Shown in pieces: positions 14,377 to 41,318 of a stretch of DNA of 64,000 nt (position 1 is the stretch's first letter; the number at the start of each line of letters is the position of its first letter). The translations under genes and the position numbers were made by a program. Origin of the DNA: Cokeromyces recurvatus. Taxonomy: Eukaryota; Mucoromycota; Mucoromycetes; Mucorales; Mucoraceae. A model generated the notes under the pieces. That model saw only the letters and a list, made by a program, of their open reading frames with translations. It ran no database searches and was not told where the DNA came from. The stretch is taken from contig NW_026251391.1 in the NCBI RefSeq assembly GCF_025118155.1, positions 189,501 through 253,500 on the forward strand, in the 5' to 3' direction.

Positions 14377-14876
14377 ATATTTACAAAAGGAAAAAAAAAT
14401 CGAGAAAAAAAAAAAATCGAGAAAAAAAAAATCGAGAAAAAAAAAATTGAGAAAAAAAATCGAAAAAAATAAAATAAAATGTCCCTGCATACATTTATTT
14501 ATTTATTTTCCGCGCAATCCTAATTTATTAACAATAATGATTTACATGTATTACATTCTATAAATATTTTCTGTGTGATTCTAATTTATTATCAAGTGTG
14601 ATTTATATACATTATATGCATATATATATATTTTTTTTCAAGTACAAATAGAATATGAGATAAGACTATCAATCATCATTGTAAATATGGAAGCAATATG
14701 TACATAATCATAATAAATGGTATCCCTTCAATGAAGTCTACTAACTATCATATTTTTTTTCATTTGTTTGAGCCTTTTACAAGATCATAATCGTTATTAT
14801 TTAATAGTATTTTTTTTTGTGGTAGGGGCCTTGTATGGTTAGAGAAATATATTGTAATATGTTCAAGCTTACTTAC

Positions 14877-15007
14877 AAGGAAGTAAACCTCTATGTAGAT
14901 CAATTTTATTCTTTAATTTATCTGCTAGTGTCTCTGCAGGTACAATCATTTTTGTCATGAAATCTTGTAAATGTGTTGTATTTTCGAAAACTTTAACTTT
15001 ATTGCGC
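14877..15007 (-). pseudogene. Orphan exon-like fragment
   Basis: On the minus strand, 43 codons (starting RNKVKVFENTTHLQDFM, ending LHRGLLP) are bounded by a plausible acceptor (TTATTAG at the 15008 side) and a strong donor (GTAAGT just after 14877). Phases are 2 in and 1 out. I found no partner exon on either side and do not recognise the family. It abuts the repeat-flanked Fanzor relic, so it may be what is left of a gene cut by that insertion. It could also be a chance open stretch. Confidence 0.3.
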
Positions 15008-15169
15008 CTAATAAGGAATAATATCATCTGATATATTATCGATTCTCGTTTTATCCACTATACTACTGTATTTGAAAGTCGTAAGGAATTATTAGTCTTA
15101 AAAATAAAATATTATTTCTCTTCTCTTGCTGAATAATTGAACTTCATGCCAAGGATATTGTAGTATTTC

Positions 15170-16021
15170 TACTTTAAATTCGGAAATTGTCTAGTTCTTT
15201 TTGGACAAATCAAACTTATGATTCAGATGGATTTGCTTATCTTTTTTGGATGAAACGTAAAAAAAAAGAAAATTAGTTTTCAGACGGATGAGAGATTCAT
15301 ACTCAGATTTTTTTTATTATTATTATTGCAGTTTATCAAACTAATAGTAGTATATGCGTCTTATTCGCTAGAAGTTGTTATTCGATAGATAATTTTTCCA
15401 AGAGTTGAATGCTGCTATTTGTCATTTTAGGTTATCAGCTGTTGATGAGTGAAGGTGTGTTGTATGTATACATTCAGATTGAAATACTACATTAACAAGC
15501 ATTGTCGGTACTACTGGCAAGAGGTATTGGAACTAAAAGTAATGTATTCATGTATTTTTTTTTATCAGTTGGATGGTGTTTATTAGTTTGATAATAAATA
15601 TAATTAGCGGGTTGAAGATTATGAATCAAAACGTCTGAAGAAAAAGGAAAAATAGAGTCGCGTGGATGACAGACAAGAAGCAAATCAGTCTGTGTGTAAA
15701 AACTGTCATTAAACCGGTCATAAAAATTATCGGCCAAAAGATTGTCCAAATCATAAACTAACAAAGGTTGAAGAAGTACACGGTCTTTTTGAGAAACAAA
15801 ACTATTGCTGTCATCAGAAAGATAAAACTAGACATAATTCTGAGATCAGAATACAAAACGGTCATCCTCAGTAAAGTCCAAAAAAGTATTCAAACATGTC
15901 CATAATATAATGATACGCGCACAATTGTTCGTGAATTACTATGTAATTATCCATCCTGATCACACTGTTGACAAAAAGGTTTTCTCTCAAAACTTCTAGT
16001 ATGATATAATACAGTAGTTAG

Positions 16022-16071
<50 letters not shown>

Positions 16072-18200
16072 AGAGAGAGAGAATCCAAGTCCGAAACACC
16101 TTCCAAGTGATTGTTTAGAAAATTGGAGCAACTTTTCAACATGATATAATGTAAGCTATTAGATACTTCCAGAAGTAAAAGGATATAGTCATTATGTAAC
16201 TGCCGTTTGTGTGGAAATGGCCATGATTTACGCAAATAATATCGTCGAGTGCTTCGAGACAAGACTGAAATCATATATCTTGCACAATATTGCAAAGAAA
16301 TTTGAAAAGGTACATAGTTCTTTATTAAATATTATGTTGAATGTTTTTAAAATATATATGATATAGCCAGATAAAGGTATACTCAAAAAGATTACTCATA
16401 TGTACTGCTACCAGAGTATTTGTGGAGGTACATCACCTACATGGCCAGACGATCTGCCTAGAATGTACAATAATAAGAAATTTGTAATTGATGACATTTG
16501 TAAAGAATTAGCAGACATAAACATGCCTAAACCAGTTACCCTTCAAAACTTGTCAAAGTCCCTAGGAGTCAACATACCTATGTTAACCTAAATTCTGCGA
16601 AAACATGGACAGCAACACCAAAAGAAAGTATTAAAATACCAAGACAAAAATGGAAACCAAGATTTTCCTCGTTTATTCTAATCAACTCCCTGTGCCATCT
16701 TTAAAGTGGTAATTTGTATCTATAAATCCAGATACTCTTGCTGTTTTTGTTGGTAAAACATTACTAAGCACCTATGAAGAAAAACTAGAAATGTTTAATC
16801 AAATCTTTGATTTCAAAAAACTCGAAATAAATAGGCGTGTAGTTATTATCATTTAGCTTTCTTATATATGTTACTCATTCTTAACCAATGCTTTTTATTA
16901 GATACTGACTATAGTATTGAAACTTTACGGGATTCAGCTAAGAAGAAAAAGACTGTTTTTTTCAAATGTTATCCAAACCACCAGTTTTACCGCTGATGTT
17001 GTTCTTATCCAAAGTACAAAGACAAAAGATGATGCTTCTTTTGATAGCTATGAACAAGTTTTTGATATTTCATTGTTCGGCAATGTTATAACAAGTAAAG
17101 AGCTAAGTGATATTTCTCTTTATGCTATAGACCTAAATCGAGGACAGATGTTTGCTGTTGTCTATGGTCATGATGAAAGTTCCCATCAGATTAGAAGATG
17201 CTCTACCAAAGAATACTATACTTACACAGGTAGTAAAAGACATGAAAGGAGAAAAAGAAAAAAATACAAAGAACAGAAAGAAAAGGAAAAGAAGAAGAAA
17301 AAAAAGAAAAAAAAACAAGATATACAACAGAATACTATAGATAAAGAGGTACAACAAACCACAAGATTAGTGTTAATAAAACAATAGAATAATTATTATA
17401 TTAATGTATTGTTTATTTAGAAGAAAAGTCAAATCCTGGAGATCAGGAAAATTTCATTATCAAAAAGAGAGTTTACCCATGATTTCTTTTGGTAATGGAA
17501 TGTTCGGTAAGAACATATATAAGTTTCGTGGACCTTGAGTTGGTCTTACTGGAGTACTTTGGAATCAACTTAAATGCAGGCAAAGATCTGATGATTTTAC
17601 TAGTTGCCTATGTAGATGAATACCGTACTTCAAAGGTACAAATTATTAAGTTGCATTAATTTTTAATTTTACAACTAAATGTCATAATACTGCTAATATT
17701 TAGACGTGTCATTCATGTAAGCAAATGTTTTTCACTGAAGCTATCATCGGATTGCACAGTGCTCTTGCTTGCACAAGTTGTGGAATGATGTGGCAACGTG
17801 ATGTGAGCGCATCAAAAAATATCTTTGAGGTTTCTCAAGACATGCTCGGCGGTCGTGGTCGTCCCCGAGAATTAACAAGATGCAAGTAAATCTTTAATTA
17901 TATCGCCGTCTCGAACACGATTTTCCTTCTTTTTTTTTTTTTTAGAAGGAATTTAGATTTTTACTGGTAAGAATCTCAAACATAAATCCTGACTCGTCTG
18001 AAAACTAATTTTCCTTTTTCTGAATTTCCGAATTTAAAGTACTAACCTTACTATACAATCATTTACAGCTTTTACACTTTGGATTCAGACGATGTTAGTT
18101 TTTTTTTTTAGATGAATTAAAATTACTTTTCAGATGATTTGCTTACCTTTTCCGGATGAAATAAAAAAGGAAATTCAGATAAAAAAAAGTTAGTTTTAAA
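15170..18200. mobile_element. Repeat-flanked element containing the Fanzor relic
   Basis: Two perfect 19-bp inverted repeat pairs flank the Fanzor relic. GAAAATTAGTTTTCAGACG at 15268-15286 is inverted at 17995-18013. TACTTTAAATTCGGAAATT at 15170-15188 is inverted at 18023-18041. A degenerate direct repeat (CAGATG, TTTGCTTA, GGATGAAA in order) is at 15221-15256 and 18131-18161. The nesting order fits subterminal repeats of a DNA transposon. Exact ends, target-site duplications and a transposase were not found. Known eukaryotic Fanzor genes are often carried in DNA transposons, which fits this reading. Confidence 0.5.
15660..17889 (+). pseudogene. Degenerate Fanzor (eukaryotic TnpB-like RNA-guided nuclease) gene
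   Basis: In-order fragments in several frames. First, a zinc-knuckle-like piece (CKNCH, stop, TGHKN ... DCPNH) at 15689-15760. Then the N-terminal helical region: AQLFVNYYVIIHP at 15910-15999, and YANNIVECFETRLKSYI up to a donor at 16310. Then WPDDLPRMYNNKKFV at 16368-16591 and NPDTLAVFVGKTLLSTYEEK at 16725-16851. The RuvC-I-like YAIDLNRGQMFAVVYG follows (Asp codon 17130-17132, open frame 16917-17387), with CSTKEYYTYTG after it. SFGNGMFGKN is near 17486, the RuvC-II-like VAYVDEYRTSK at 17591-17635, and a GT-AG intron leads to 17704-17889. That last exon has a CHSC/CTSCG zinc ribbon and RuvC-III-like QRDVSASKNI. Stops and frame changes, including one inside the zinc knuckle, indicate a pseudogene. 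An A/T homopolymer at 16021-16069 interrupts the N-terminal part. TnpB-family identity is clear from the C-terminal ribbon; activity is not expected. Confidence 0.75.
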
Positions 18201-18684
18201 CGAGCTCCAACAAGAAATCATTCATACCTTTAAATATGTAAAGACTGTTGAAAAAAAGAAAAAAAAAAGAAAAAAAAATAAAACTCCTTTTTTTTTTTGT
18301 AAACCAAGAAAACTGTTGCTATGGTTTCTATTGTCAATAAATCACCCATTATAAATGCTGATTTACTTGGTGGTTTCTTGAACTTTATAATCATACTGGC
18401 TAAGGCTTATTCTTTACATAATAGATATATCCATATTAATAATATTTATGTTCCTCATATAATACATAATTCATTGAACACACTATAGATAGTTACGATT
18501 TGTACAAGTAAAAAAGCTTCTATACTTTATTAGCTTTGAAAATGTTTATAAAGTAAATGATAGGAATATGCTCATAGTTACTAGTTAATAAAAGACAAAT
18601 ATAAAGAATCTATATGCATGCAAATTTATTACAAAGAAAAAAAAATAGATATAATAAACAGATAAAAAAAGAAGGTAAAGTTAT
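17890..18684. other. Intergenic: repeat-element end and A/T-rich DNA
   Basis: To about 18200 this is the downstream repeat array of the Fanzor-bearing element. From 18200 to 18684 it is A/T-rich with T/A homopolymers and no recognised coding exon. Confidence 0.5.
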
Positions 18685-20065
18685 TTATTTCTTGCCTTTG
18701 ATATTAGGGGGACCGCGTTTTGTCACTTTACCACCTTTGCTACGTTTACCACCTTCGAATCCGGGACGTGCTTTGTTGGAAGCCTTAGCTTTAATTCCCT
18801 TCTTTCTATTCTTCTTATCTTCTATTTTTACTTTAATATTTTCCTCTCTCTTCTTAATCTTCTTCATTTCATCTTGCTTAACTTTATCGAGTCGTTTCTT
18901 CCATTCTTGTCCACTCTTATTCTTTGCCTTTTCTTGTCTCTTAATGGTCTTCTTCAATAATTTAGCATCATCTTTAATCTTTTCACCTGTAGCCAAAGCA
19001 AGCACTCTATTCCATTCCTCCTTTTCAACCATTTCATTTGCTTTAGCTTTATCTCCTTCCTTGAGCTTCTCAATCTTTTCTTTCTTAGCCTCAAGCATCT
19101 TCAACTGAGTCTTAGCATCAGAAGGACCCTTCTTTTTCTTTTGTTCGTTACCGATTGCTAATTTACCAAAGTATACATCACCATCCATTTTAATAGAATC
19201 AGCAGAAGGACGAAGTTTATCAGATGTAGGCTAAAAAAAATTAAAAATGAGTAATTACATGTTTAGAAGCTTTTTGATATATATATGTATATATATTATA
19301 TATATTTACCTTTTTAACATCTAATTTAACAAGTTCTTCAGAAGTAGATTTACCACCCTTTTCTTTTTGTGCTTTTATTGCCTTCTTTCTATCTTCTTTC
19401 TTTTTATTTCTTGCAGCTAAAATATCTTCACGACTTCTTGGCTTGGCAGTATTAGAACCTGGTGCATTACGTTTTTTACGTAATTCATTAATACGCTCAT
19501 GAAGACGGTTACGAAGTTGAGTAATATCACTCTTTTCCATAGGTTGGACAATAGCTGTGTAAATCAATTACAATAGAATTTTTTTTGTCAGCATCAATAC
19601 AAATAAAAGACTTCAGTCTTATTTACCTGGTTCTTTTGTTGATGATGCCGTTGTTGTTGATTCACTTTTAACAGATTCATTGTCAACAAGCCCACTAAAA
19701 GCATTTGTATCAACATCCATTTTTTCTGATTCATTATCGTTATTTGTTGATGCTTCATTTTCAGAATCACTTTCAGATTCATTCATTTCCTTTTCAATCA
19801 ATTGTTTTGCCTTTTCCTGTTGCACTTCCACTATTGACTTTGCGTTATCTGGATCAAGTTTTGCTTTCTTTGCTTTCTTTGAAGCATCTTTGATTGCCTG
19901 TTTAGGTGCCTTCTTACGTTTATTGTGTTGAAATTTGTTATTAGTCTCGTCATTTTTATCCATTACATAAAACTTTGCGGGTATTAATTTTAGTAAGTCA
20001 TCAAAGATTTGTGCATCACGCATTAGACGATCTGATAAAGAATCAATTACATGATTTTGAACCAT
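18685..20065 (-). CDS. RRP14: SURF6/Rrp14 nucleolar ribosome-biogenesis protein
   Basis: Nucleolar, nucleic-acid-binding factor needed for maturation of both ribosomal subunits. Exons: 20065-19627, 19554-19310, 19230-18685; 409 aa with matching phases. The N-terminus (LSDRLMRDAQIFDDLLKLIPAKFY) is the conserved helix of the family, followed by a Lys-rich segment and an acidic Ser/Glu stretch. Exon 2 has the motif LRNRLHERINELRKKRNAPG and SREDILAARNKKKE, and exon 3 has GDVYFGKLAIGNEQKKKKGP and a long Lys/Glu coiled-coil, ending in the basic tail GKVTKRGPPNIKGKK. These are the characteristic SURF6 blocks in order. Intron 2 begins GTAAAT. Confidence 0.92.
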
Positions 20066-38634: not shown

Positions 38635-39673
38635 AGCAGTAATAAATGTTACTACAGTTTTCTTTTTTTTTACGCTTTGAATGCAGACAATGTTAATTTA
38701 TTTTATTTTTTTTTATTGCAATCGACACACGTTATTCCTACTTGATAGATTAAAAAAAAAGGAGTTTCTACTTTAATTTGTTATATATCATGATATTGTC
38801 TCTCTTTTGCATTAGATTGTCTACTATTACATTTTAATAGCCCTCACTAGCATTATTCTCATATTTGCATCAATTGAAACTGGTAAGGAAGACGATCCTC
38901 TCTCACAAGATTGTATATACATATTTATATATTTTACTTATCATGAAGATCGTAGATTCAGATTATTACAGGTAAAAAAGTCTGATTTGTTTGAAAATTA
39001 ACATTATTTTCCTATCTGAATTCCCTTTTCTCGGTTCATCCAAAATTATCTTACTAGACTGATCCGAGCAATCGAGTAGTATTATTTAGACACAAAGATC
39101 AACAAAAAAAAAAAAAAAATAATTATGAAATTAATTTTTTATTTATTTATTTATTTTTTGGGGAGAAGAAAAGAGAAAATAAGCTCACATTAAATTATTA
39201 AATCCCAGATAAATGCCCTTGTCGATCTCTTTTTTCTTTTAGGAAAAAAAAAAAAAAAAAAAAGGATGTTCAGTATTCATGTGACAAGGAAATTATATCA
39301 TAATAGAACATTGGTTTCGATTTATTAGTATTAAAAATGATAAAATATTTACTGTCTTTATTAAATAGTCTTTTAATGAATTATTTGAAATATGTATTTT
39401 AAGAAAAGAAGAAGAAGAGAACAACAATGTGTATTATTCCAAGTATTAAAATGCCAAGCCAAATCAAACTATATCGGCACCAAAAAAAAAAAATCCTTTC
39501 AACAAATTATAATCGTTCCCGTCTCTTATCATTGCTACATTAAGTATTTATCCAAAAAAAAAAAAAAGTATCGATGATTTTTTTTTCTTTTTTCAGATAA
39601 TACTTCACTTTTTAATATAAGTAAAAGAAAAAAAAATACATCTTTTTTCCTTTTTATTCTTGAGTTATAAAAA
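38635..39673. other. Intergenic region with a copy of the Fanzor-flanking repeat
   Basis: Contains a dispersed-repeat copy at about 38671-39060 (listed separately), poly(A/T) runs at about 39105-39118 and 39243-39263, and otherwise A/T-rich DNA without a recognisable gene. Confidence 0.5.
38671..39060. repeat. Dispersed repeat related to the ends of the Fanzor-bearing element
   Basis: TACGCTTTGAATGCAGACAA at 38671-38690 matches TACACTTTGGATTCAGACGA at 18073-18092. A second block, with GTTTGAAAATTAAC, ATCTGAATTCCC and TTCATCCAAAA in order (38990-39045), matches the reverse complement of about 18140-18200 and of 15240-15290. No coding capacity; it looks like a short non-autonomous (MITE-like) relative. 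The boundaries are approximate. Confidence 0.5.
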
Positions 39674-41318
39674 ATGAAAAGAGGAGTTACATACCTGACT
39701 ACGCTTATATCAATCATCTTTTTATATTCTATATCTTTGTATTTTGTTTCAAGACCATCATCAAGTGGATGTTTCAGTTCGCTTACAAATGGAAGATCAG
39801 GATTAATAAATAATAGAGAAGAAGTCAATACTACTTTTATACAGCTTCCTCTTTCTTTTAATAATAATTTAATCGACAAATATACGATTGTTGATATTAA
39901 ACCGACTTGTGATAAAATTCCAGTTTATAAACAAAAAGAAAAGGCAGTTATCGTCATATTAGTTAGAAATAATGAACTTCAACCTATGAGACGTACACTA
40001 AGGCAATTTGAAGAGTAAGTTCATCAGTCAGTCAGTCTGTTTATACCGTCTGTTCATACAGTCTGTTCATACAGTCTGTTCATACAGTCTGTTCATACAG
40101 TCTGTTTATACAGTCTGTTTATACAGTCTGTCTGTCTGTCTATACTGTCATGTTTATTAACTTCTTTATCCTAGTCGCTTCAATCGTAAATATAATTATC
40201 CATTTGTCTTTTTAAATGATGAACCTTTTACTGATGAATTCAAAAGGGCTATATCTGCAATGACAGATGCTAGTATTAAATTTGGTCTCGTACCTAAACA
40301 TATGTGGTCTGTACCAGATCATGTTAATCAAACAGTAATGAATCATCAACTACGCGATTATGCTTCTCGTAATATCATGTATGGTGGATCTCTATCCTAT
40401 CGTCATATGTGTCGTTTTAATTCAGGTTTCTTTTATCGTCATCCACTCTTAGAAGAATATGACTATTACTGGTAAATAGATATATATATATAAATATATA
40501 TAAATATCTGTATAAATAATGCTTATTTAACTCATATCATATTATGCGTACATACCATACCTTACCATATCATACTTCTATTTTTTTTTTATTAGGCGTG
40601 TAGAGCCAGGCGTTGAATTTTATTGTGACCTTGATTATGATCCATTCAGATTTATGAGAGAAAATAATAAAGAATATGGTTTTACAATTACACTTCAAGA
40701 GATTCCTGAAACAATTCCTTCACTTTGGGATCATACAATCCGATTTGCCCATCAACATGAACTTAATACAACTTTATTAAGATTCTTTGGTAATCCAAAA
40801 ACTGGCTACAACTTGTGTCATTATTGGTCCAACTTTGAAATTGCTAGCTTAAACTTTTGGAGAAGCAACGATTATCAAGCTTATTTTGATTATCTTGACA
40901 GTACAGGCAATTTCTTTTATGAAAGATGGGGTGATGCGGCTGTTCATAGTTTAGCAGCAGGTCTCTTTTTAAACAAAAGTCAGGTTCATTTCTTTAATGA
41001 TATTGGTTATAAACACGATAATTTTGCTCATTGTATTGATGACGGTATTTATGGAAAGTGCATGTGTCCAGGTTAGTTAGTTTTTTTTAGTTCCTTCTCA
41101 AGAAAAAAAAATAGATATACGTATTTATATCTTTTCCTTTAGAGAATGTAGCAAATTTTGATAATCAATGGGGATCTTGTCTTTCAGTAAGTAGTGACAC
41201 GATAGATATATTATTACAAGCTTATTTTTTTTTTTATTATTAGTCTTGGAAACAATATCCTGAAGAAGGATATCCTTGGAGTTTCTCTAAAGATTATCTT
41301 CCCAATCAAGTTGTTTAA
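39674..41318 (+). CDS. Alpha-1,2-mannosyltransferase, GT15 (Ktr/Mnt) family
   Basis: Golgi type II membrane glycosyltransferase adding alpha-1,2-mannose from GDP-mannose to O- and N-glycans of secreted and wall proteins. Exons: 39674-40014, 40175-40471, 40596-41071, 41143-41186, 41244-41318; 410 aa. A short cytosolic N-terminus and signal anchor (YLTTLISIIFLYSISLYFV) are followed by a stem and the catalytic domain. Landmarks: VIVILVRNNEL, YPFVFLNDEPF, YRHMCRFNSGFFYRHPLL, RVEPGVEFYCDLDYDPFRFM and YNLCHYWSNFEIA, whose Glu294 corresponds to the proposed nucleophile/essential Glu of Kre2-type enzymes, then ERWGDAAVHSLAAGLFL. Length is typical of the family. Intron 1 carries a 13-bp minisatellite. 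Confidence 0.94.
40035..40140 (+). repeat. 13-bp minisatellite in GT15 intron 1
   Basis: Seven tandem units of GTCTGTTCATACA or one-base variants (T for C at position 8, C at position 13 of the first unit), from 40035 to 40125, followed by a short (GTCT)n run to about 40140. It lies wholly inside the intron between donor 40015 and acceptor 40174. Confidence 0.9.

What the first reader, a model, noticed from the sequence alone, without database searches (positions are those of the whole stretch)
15660..17889. Relic of a Fanzor RNA-guided nuclease with its catalytic motifs still readable
In-order + strand fragments show the TnpB/Fanzor layout: an N-terminal helical region (NNIVECFETRLKSYI), RuvC-I-like AIDLNRGQMFAVVYG, RuvC-II-like VDEYRTSK, and a last exon with CHSC/CTSCG zinc ribbon and QRDVSASKNI. 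All three expected acidic residues and all four ribbon cysteines are present, yet stops and frame changes break the gene. Such a pattern suggests recent decay. It also leaves open that intact copies exist elsewhere in this genome.
Basis: partly seen in the sequence, partly recalled or inferred. Interest (0 to 1): 0.85.

Follow-up and report, generated by a model that had tools for sequence, protein, structure and literature searches.

The report
Dead Fanzor transposon with readable guide-RNA
This is the decayed remains of a fungal mobile element that once encoded a Fanzor RNA-guided DNA-cutting enzyme; the protein gene is broken, but the folded RNA that probably guided it can still be recognised just behind the gene.

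Summary
Window 15677-17889 (+) carries in-order, broken pieces of a Fanzor gene: RuvC-I Asp (17130), RuvC-II Glu (17618), last RuvC Asp (17800) and four zinc-ribbon cysteines. They sit in an inverted-repeat element of about 15162-18041. 'Recent' decay is not supported. The genome (28 Mb; nearest proteins from Mucorales fungi) holds about 122 Fanzor zinc-ribbon loci. I saw no unbroken copy among 29 read, by eye.

A covariance model built without the window's group finds it at E 1.2e-12. It lies behind 64 of 76 Fanzor loci examined and shows compensatory base changes. I read it as the omega-RNA scaffold; no transcript was seen. Near its end, 51 of 76 loci (0 antisense) carry ACAGGTA, resembling back-to-back splice sites. 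The relic is a new member of a known kind; the RNA family and a possible splicing role are the interesting parts.

The parts
15162..15297 (+). Left terminal inverted repeat; outer end TAGTATTTC-TACTTTAAATTCGGAAATT (15162-15188)
   Evidence: Inverted pairs with the right end (I2, I3); exact 19-nt outer end at 15170-15188 and, inverted, at 18023-18041; near forms of the outer end beside other Fanzor loci
15677..15790 (+). Start of the Fanzor coding remnant: zinc-knuckle-like segment, one in-frame stop
   Evidence: tblastn with the L020 N-terminal exon, summed E 1.2e-31; translation. Pfam support for a zinc knuckle in relatives is weak and under cut-off
15810..16014 (+). N-terminal remnant, two pieces in different frames (15810-15878; 15895-16014), one stop
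16076..16309 (+). N-terminal helical remnant incl. NNIVECFETRLKSYI; two in-frame stops upstream of it
   Evidence: (L020N, L034N)
16310..16366 (+). Putative intron (GT..AG)
   Evidence: Read from sequence; not tested with RNA
16367..16591 (+). Second exon remnant, ends in a stop (16589-16591)
   Evidence: tblastn L034E2 E 3e-6; 80% identity to copy C1a (L010) over 45 residues
16713..16832 (+). Next coding remnant (TLAVFVGKTLLSTYEEKLEMFNQIFDFKK)
   Evidence: L020, L021; P0003, P0014
16953..17387 (+). RuvC-I exon; catalytic Asp codon 17130-17132; internal deletion of 260-270 nt near 17260
   Evidence: deletion seen against C1a and C1b
17419..17635 (+). RuvC middle part and RuvC-II (VDEYRTSK, Glu codon 17618-17620); stop 17536-17538 and frame change near 17597
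17636..17703 (+). Putative intron between TSK and TCHSC (GT..AG); open frames of the L011 group break at the same place
   Evidence: Read from sequence
17704..17889 (+). Zinc-ribbon/RuvC-III exon; Cys x4, last Asp codon 17800-17802, stop TAA 17887-17889
   Evidence: PF07282 25.5 bits; 88 own-genome matches incl. itself
17901..17986 (+). Conserved structured RNA, candidate omega-RNA scaffold: H1 17905-17909/17917-17921 (one pair broken here), H2 17923-17930/17944-17951, H3 17955-17963/17968-17976, ACTGGTAAG 17963-17971
   Evidence: R1 71.3 bits (window row used in building); R2 built without window-group rows 63.4 bits, E 1.2e-12; fold
17995..18041 (-). Right terminal inverted repeat, shortened by an internal deletion

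Best explanation
The stretch is a dead copy of a DNA transposon that carried a Fanzor1-type RNA-guided nuclease gene in a Mucorales fungus.

When alive, the element would have supplied (i) a multi-exon nuclease mRNA and (ii) a structured RNA starting just behind the stop codon, whose hairpins H1 and H2 are bound by the RuvC/zinc-ribbon side of the protein. The RNA's 3' end would read into DNA flanking the element as guide. The protein-RNA complex would then cut DNA matching the guide, favouring retention or copying of the element, while a transposase acting in trans moved the inverted-repeat ends.

Shown here: protein homology, motif order, terminal repeats, breaks, and the conserved RNA with compensatory changes. 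Inferred: that the RNA is transcribed and bound, where its guide begins, and that it directs cutting. This copy cannot make an active nuclease; its RNA part could in principle still be transcribed.
For: Protein: PF07282 E 1.5e-5. L020 N-terminal exon E 1.2e-31 and other relatives colinear over 15677-17886. 24 relatives found, 23 named, all of these from Rhizopus, Gilbertella, Phycomyces or Mucor; SpuFz1 is the only PDB match of P0001 and P0020.
Element: exact inverted ends at 15170-15188 and 18023-18041; near forms at other Fanzor loci.
RNA: R2, built from 14 sequences without the window's group, hits 17901-17986 at E 1.2e-12. A genome-wide H1 pattern gives 50 hits against 0 for the reversed control. 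39 of 50 lie 16-117 nt downstream of a zinc-ribbon match on the same strand; of the other 11, 10 have Fanzor coding matches upstream (L118 only at E 0.006, L125 about 670 nt away) and 1 (L116) has none. Covariation: 28 both-side changes against 12.4 +/- 3.0 shuffled, 0/500. For H1 in A5 (22 rows not in the first set plus the window row; chosen by model or pattern hits, so leaning towards pairing): 18 against 7.2 +/- 2.0, 0/500.
Precedent: SpuFz1's 75-nt scaffold region between stop codon and 3' repeat (PMC10432273, section 7 read).
Against: The zinc-ribbon score is just under Pfam's cut-off. The window's own pieces hit SpuFz1 only at E 0.88, and the RuvC-I piece hits no Fanzor structure. An AlphaFold model of relative P0001 was unusable (pLDDT 37.8). 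Single-sequence folds of eight copies are only modestly stable (z -3.0 to +0.4; 128 and 99 of 200 shuffles fold as well for L022 and L106), and L022's best fold lacks H2. RNAalifold on A2 predicts H1 but not H2. In one search two of five measures do not exceed the shuffles, and one slid version (+3, 60 cells) still pairs 71.7%. H3 has only weak support (378 of 5000 permutations as good). Within close copies the RNA is no better conserved than the coding part. The motif ends about 55 nt (window) to 130 nt (L020) inside the element, whereas the conserved SpuFz1 region spans its 3' repeat. 12 of 76 loci have no model match at E 0.01. No transcript was seen.
Confidence: 0.85

Rival explanations
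1. The protein part is a Fanzor relic, but the conserved 3' structure is a 3'-UTR or transcription-end/export element of the transposon mRNA, not a guide RNA.
For: It lies directly behind the stop codon on the sense strand and usually carries a splice-like ACAGGTA; no small RNA was seen; close copies do not conserve it better than the coding part.
Against: It matches the place and scale of known Fanzor1 omega-RNAs (PMC10432273 section 7 and PMC11423790 section 5, both read). It is shared by Fanzors whose zinc ribbons are only 31-48% identical to the window's and by two unrelated terminal-repeat types.
Confidence: 0.2
2. The element is a TnpB of bacterial origin (contaminant or recent transfer), not a eukaryotic Fanzor.
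For: PF07282 also matches prokaryotes (controls); the zinc ribbon's best PDB hits are Cas12m (E 0.0069) and TranC (0.03), ahead of SpuFz1 (0.88).
Against: Apparent introns, about 122 loci on many contigs, all 23 named relatives being Mucorales proteins, only PDB match of two of these SpuFz1.
Confidence: 0.02
3. The relic's RNA gene is still used: the broken copy is a guide-RNA donor for Fanzor proteins made elsewhere.
For: The window RNA keeps an 8-bp H2 and a 9-bp H3, while copies C1a and C1b have lost the 3' strand of H2; several broken copies keep the motif.
Against: No excess conservation of the RNA over coding sequence within five groups of close copies; no unbroken Fanzor gene was seen to supply protein; the right end is rearranged; one H1 pair is broken.
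Confidence: 0.1

Closest known systems
SpuFz1 (Spizellomyces punctatus Fanzor1; PDB 8gkh)
   Same: Fungal Fanzor1; D..E..D RuvC with C4 ribbon; RNA between stop codon and 3' repeat; inverted-repeat element with putative TA duplications; partial and 'ghost' copies (PMC10432273 section 7; PMC3627910 passages)
   Different: Single open reading frame; 30-nt repeats; its conserved 75-nt RNA region spans the 3' repeat; protein match distant
PpFz1 (Parasitella parasitica Fanzor1)
   Same: Mucorales Fanzor1; omega-RNA with two stem-loops (SL1 7 bp, SL2 4 bp), similar in scale to H1 and H2 (PMC11423790 section 5 read)
   Different: No chain named as it turned up in five PDB sequence searches; its RNA sequence (Table S3) was not available, so whether the RNA families are the same is untested
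Fanzor1 elements MCi-4, ROr-4, PBl-3 of Mucorales (Bao and Jurka 2013)
   Same: Mucorales; terminal repeats; no transposase in the element (PMC3627910 section 12 read)
   Different: Those have MuDR-like repeats and 9-bp target duplications; here TA flanks the common ends and no 9-bp duplication was seen, but the right end is rearranged
Bacterial IStrons (group I intron plus IS element)
   Same: Only as an analogy for the splice-like site in the RNA (PMC4227781, search listing with start of abstract seen)
   Different: Group I ribozyme in bacteria; nothing here shows splicing

Membership tests
Fanzor1 | RuvC-I Asp, [TS][TS]XX before C4 zinc ribbon, then X(5,50)-RD (motif in the abstract of PMC3627910, shared with TnpB) | tested here: met
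   Asp 17130, TS-KT-C, four Cys, CGMMWQRD
Fanzor1 | Spacing D-X(125,275)-[TS][TS] | tested here: inconclusive
   260-270 nt missing and exon limits uncertain
Fanzor1 | Closer to Fanzor1 than to Fanzor2 or bacterial TnpB in a tree | not tested
   Only searches: the one PDB match of relatives P0001 and P0020 is SpuFz1; no tree built
Fanzor1 | Carried by a eukaryotic DNA transposon with terminal repeats | tested here: met
   Inverted ends 15162-15297 and 17995-18041
Fanzor1 | omega-RNA encoded at the 3' end | tested here: inconclusive
   Structured conserved motif in the right place; transcription and binding unknown
Fanzor1 | RNA-guided DNA cleavage | not testable with these tools
   Gene broken; needs experiment with an intact relative
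MuDR superfamily element (as ROr-4, PBl-3, MCi-4) | 9-bp target duplication and MuDR-type repeats | tested here: inconclusive
   No 9-bp duplication seen, but the right end is rearranged; repeats not compared with MuDR

The most novel reading that the evidence does not exclude
Mucorales Fanzor elements share an omega-RNA family whose scaffold ends in a built-in spliceosomal site (UUUUUACAG|GUAAG). Splicing at this site would either clear the element from host transcripts or join the scaffold to host RNA as guide, making these elements a spliceosomal counterpart of bacterial IStrons. The sign is present in three RNA types that otherwise differ (R1 type; L001/L005/L111; L006/L008).
Probability: 0.12. 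Interest if true: 0.88.

Novelty: new member of a known kind. Interest (0 to 1): 0.5.

Why it matters
Fanzors are the eukaryotic relatives of CRISPR nucleases, and few of their guide RNAs are known. One genome with about 122 Fanzor loci of different ages gives a natural alignment from which a guide-RNA scaffold can be read by covariation, without transcripts. That makes it directly testable which RNA these proteins bind, and whether a splice-like signal in it has a role. For the window alone the point is modest: an ordinary dead element, but one that shows where to look.

Tried and rejected
Rejected: 'recent decay' (many breaks, 14-17% divergence). Rejected: special conservation of the RNA in dead copies (RNA 0.957 against coding 0.954 in 11 copies; no clear excess in four other groups). 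Rejected: 'solo' RNA genes; of 11 pattern hits without a zinc-ribbon match, only L116 had no Fanzor coding match upstream. Rejected: presence in viral contigs; 48 stretches with the bare pattern, best model E 0.23. Led nowhere: AlphaFold of P0001 (pLDDT 37.8; not searched further); Rfam on 14500-19500 (4 matches, all far below cut-off); H3 pairing test. The terminal-end pattern with up to 3 mismatches gave 44 places against 54 for its reversed control, so only the exact and one-mismatch places mean something on their own; I then looked at 14 ends. Searches for an earlier description of this RNA: 'Fanzor'+Mucoromycota 0 papers; +Parasitella 1; +Rhizopus 2; two of Fanzor/fungal genomes/transposable elements/Mucorales, 1,140 papers, 12 listed, one with Fanzor; Fanzor+covariance model+guide RNA 1, a bridge-RNA paper. 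The library lacks most subscription papers. The organism was not identified to species. No tree was built. The terminal-repeat superfamily stays unassigned. In one search, 45 motif rows were thinned to 26; 21 of these went into A2 (left out: L010, L023, L025, L090, L034) and 14 into A6. The 76 3' regions are those I fetched out of about 122 loci; many are near copies of each other (35 clusters).

Full report
What is there. The window lies at 189501-253500 of contig 45 of a 28-Mb, 64-contig genome. Pieces of one gene run in order on the + strand from 15677 to 17889. The zinc-ribbon exon reaches Pfam PF07282 at 25.5 bits against a cut-off of 26.3, and it has 88 matches in its own genome, itself included. 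Weak PDB hits of that exon are Cas12m (E 0.0069), TranC (0.03), TnpB-like protein L79 (0.22) and SpuFz1 (0.88). The RuvC-I piece alone finds no Fanzor structure. Relatives do better: P0001 (Rhizopus delemar) matches SpuFz1 at E 8.6e-4 around the RuvC-I Asp, and P0020 (Mucor flavus) at 5.7e-6. An exon of another clade, L008, matches nothing in the PDB.

How broken it is. The N-terminal exon of relative L020 is one open frame. The corresponding window stretch changes frame three times and holds four stops. The second exon ends in a stop at 16589-16591. 260-270 nt of the RuvC domain are missing against both closest copies, with the junction in an A-rich tract near 17260. A stop at 17536-17538 and a frame change near 17597 precede RuvC-II. 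The two closest copies (C1a, C1b on contig 1) are 83-86% identical in DNA over most of the gene and broken too, with frame changes shared between them (by eye). dN/dS of window against C1a is 0.49 (213 codons) and against C1b 0.54 (193 codons); per block it ranges from 0.18 to 2.3 because the blocks are short.

The element. A 19-nt outer end, TACTTTAAATTCGGAAATT, occurs exactly at 15170-15188 and inverted at 18023-18041; with one mismatch it occurs at the right end of C1a and at a place on contig 1 upstream of C1b. With up to 3 mismatches the pattern has 44 places against 54 for the reversed control, so the weaker places carry no weight alone. The left repeat resembles the right end of C1a over 141 nt at 79%; the window's right repeat has an internal deletion. 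Beside five further Fanzor loci near forms of the end occur, preceded by CAGTATTTC or a near form. The window's left end has this extension and its right end does not, so the target duplication cannot be read; TA flanks both common ends. A second group of 12 copies (L011-L021, L023) has an unrelated repeat, TACAGTCTGGGAAACTAGG. In that group two internal deletions recur: L011, L013, L014, L016 and L018 share one junction; L012, L015, L019 and L023 another. L020, L021 and L023 share one premature stop. Such copies most simply spread with broken genes, moved by a transposase from elsewhere (inference).

The RNA. Behind the stop codon of the window copy, and of most other copies, lies a conserved motif (45 of 76 Fanzor 3' regions by a 20-nt pattern with up to 6 substitutions). 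It folds as hairpin H1 (5 bp, 7-nt loop), hairpin H2 (3-8 bp in seven of eight copies folded, absent from the best fold of L022), then UUUAGAUnUUUACAGGUAAG, which may form H3. Taken singly the folds are not striking (z from -3.0 to +0.4). On 21 sequences, 83.3% of H1/H2 cells pair against 41-49% when the partner is slid; 28 cells change on both sides against 12.4 +/- 3.0 in shuffles (0/500). RNAalifold on the same alignment predicts H1 only. In A5, 22 sequences not in that set plus the window row, H1 gives 18 both-side changes against 7.2 +/- 2.0 (0/500). There, two of the five measures do not exceed the shuffles, one slid version (+3) still pairs 71.7% of 60 cells, one row (L110) is a near copy of L096, and the rows were picked by model or pattern hits. 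Stems such as CCGU/ACGG, CUGU/ACAG and CCAC/GUGG replace each other. H3 is only weakly supported (378 of 5000 permutations as good).

How specific the RNA is. Model R1 hits 64 of 76 Fanzor 3' regions at E <= 0.01, among them 43 of 55 not used to build it; many of these are near copies. Model R2, built from 14 sequences without any window-group copy, hits window 17901-17986 at 63.4 bits, E 1.2e-12; the next window hit is a decayed element end at 38939 (26.8 bits, E 0.001). A pattern of H1 with up to 3 mismatches has 50 matches in the whole genome and the reversed control 0. Of the 50, 39 lie 16-117 nt downstream of a zinc-ribbon match on the same strand. Of the remaining 11, 10 have Fanzor coding matches upstream (L118 weak, L125 distant), and L116 has none. 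Rfam gives no match above cut-off in 14500-19500.

The splice-like site. ACAGGTA occurs in the sense strand of 51 of 76 Fanzor 3' regions (23 of 35 sequence clusters), in 0 of 76 antisense, and in 1.0 on average (at most 4) after dinucleotide shuffling. It is present in clades whose RNA does not match R1 (L001, L005, L111; L006, L008). Just upstream of it T dominates, and A (35 of 51) and G (31 of 51) follow at +4 and +5. This fits a splice acceptor and donor back to back, but also a bound end of the scaffold. The window has ACTGGTAAG, so it is not among the 51 and the acceptor half is changed.

What it works like, and what it is. In place and size the RNA matches the SpuFz1 region between stop codon and 3' repeat (PMC10432273, section 7 read) and the two stem-loops of PpFz1, also Mucorales (PMC11423790, section 5 and passages read). 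It differs in that about 55 nt (window) to 130 nt (L020) of element follow. If the guide is flanking DNA, as in SpuFz1, the RNA must read through the repeat; within the L011-L021 group the sequence after the motif stays largely alike up to the repeat end (0.845 identity at +80 to +200). Fanzor1 in Mucorales was reported in 2013 (PMC3627910, section 12 and passages read), so the relic is a new member of a known kind. If the RNA family and its splice-like site were confirmed, the elements would count as a variant.

Limits. 'About 122 loci' merges the listed matches of two searches with 200-base joining; the tool calls such counts lower bounds. The copies were judged broken by eye. No transcript evidence exists here.

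Noticed in passing
window 18063-18240: Directly behind the right repeat lies about 180 nt, stretches of which recur at about 78-95% identity elsewhere, often in reverse orientation behind other Fanzor loci (e.g. contigs 11 and 29): apparently the 3' end of a second, different Fanzor element.
   Followed up: partly
window 38660-39050: A short decayed element end pair with TTCAGATTATTACAGGTAAAAAAGTCTGA but without H1/H2: possibly a 'ghost' of the same family (R2 26.8 bits, E 0.001).
   Followed up: partly
L011-L021 and L023: Two recurrent internal-deletion forms of a Fanzor element with repeat TACAGTCTGGGAAACTAGG, and one premature stop shared by three copies: spread without a working gene.
   Followed up: partly
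L006 and L008, downstream of the zinc ribbon: Another Fanzor clade with a different 3' region: an apparent intron (GTAAGC..ACTAAC..ACAG, clearest in L008) in the gene end, then a short stretch ending in TTTACAG|GTAAG.
   Followed up: no
window 15677-15790; P0010 residues 1-115; L060 1759-2466: Zinc-knuckle-like segments at the N-terminus of Mucorales Fanzors, two in P0010 by eye; Pfam support is under cut-off.
   Followed up: partly
window 40398-40491: Weak RNA-model match (19.9-22.3 bits) in a stretch that reads like coding sequence; probably chance.
   Followed up: no
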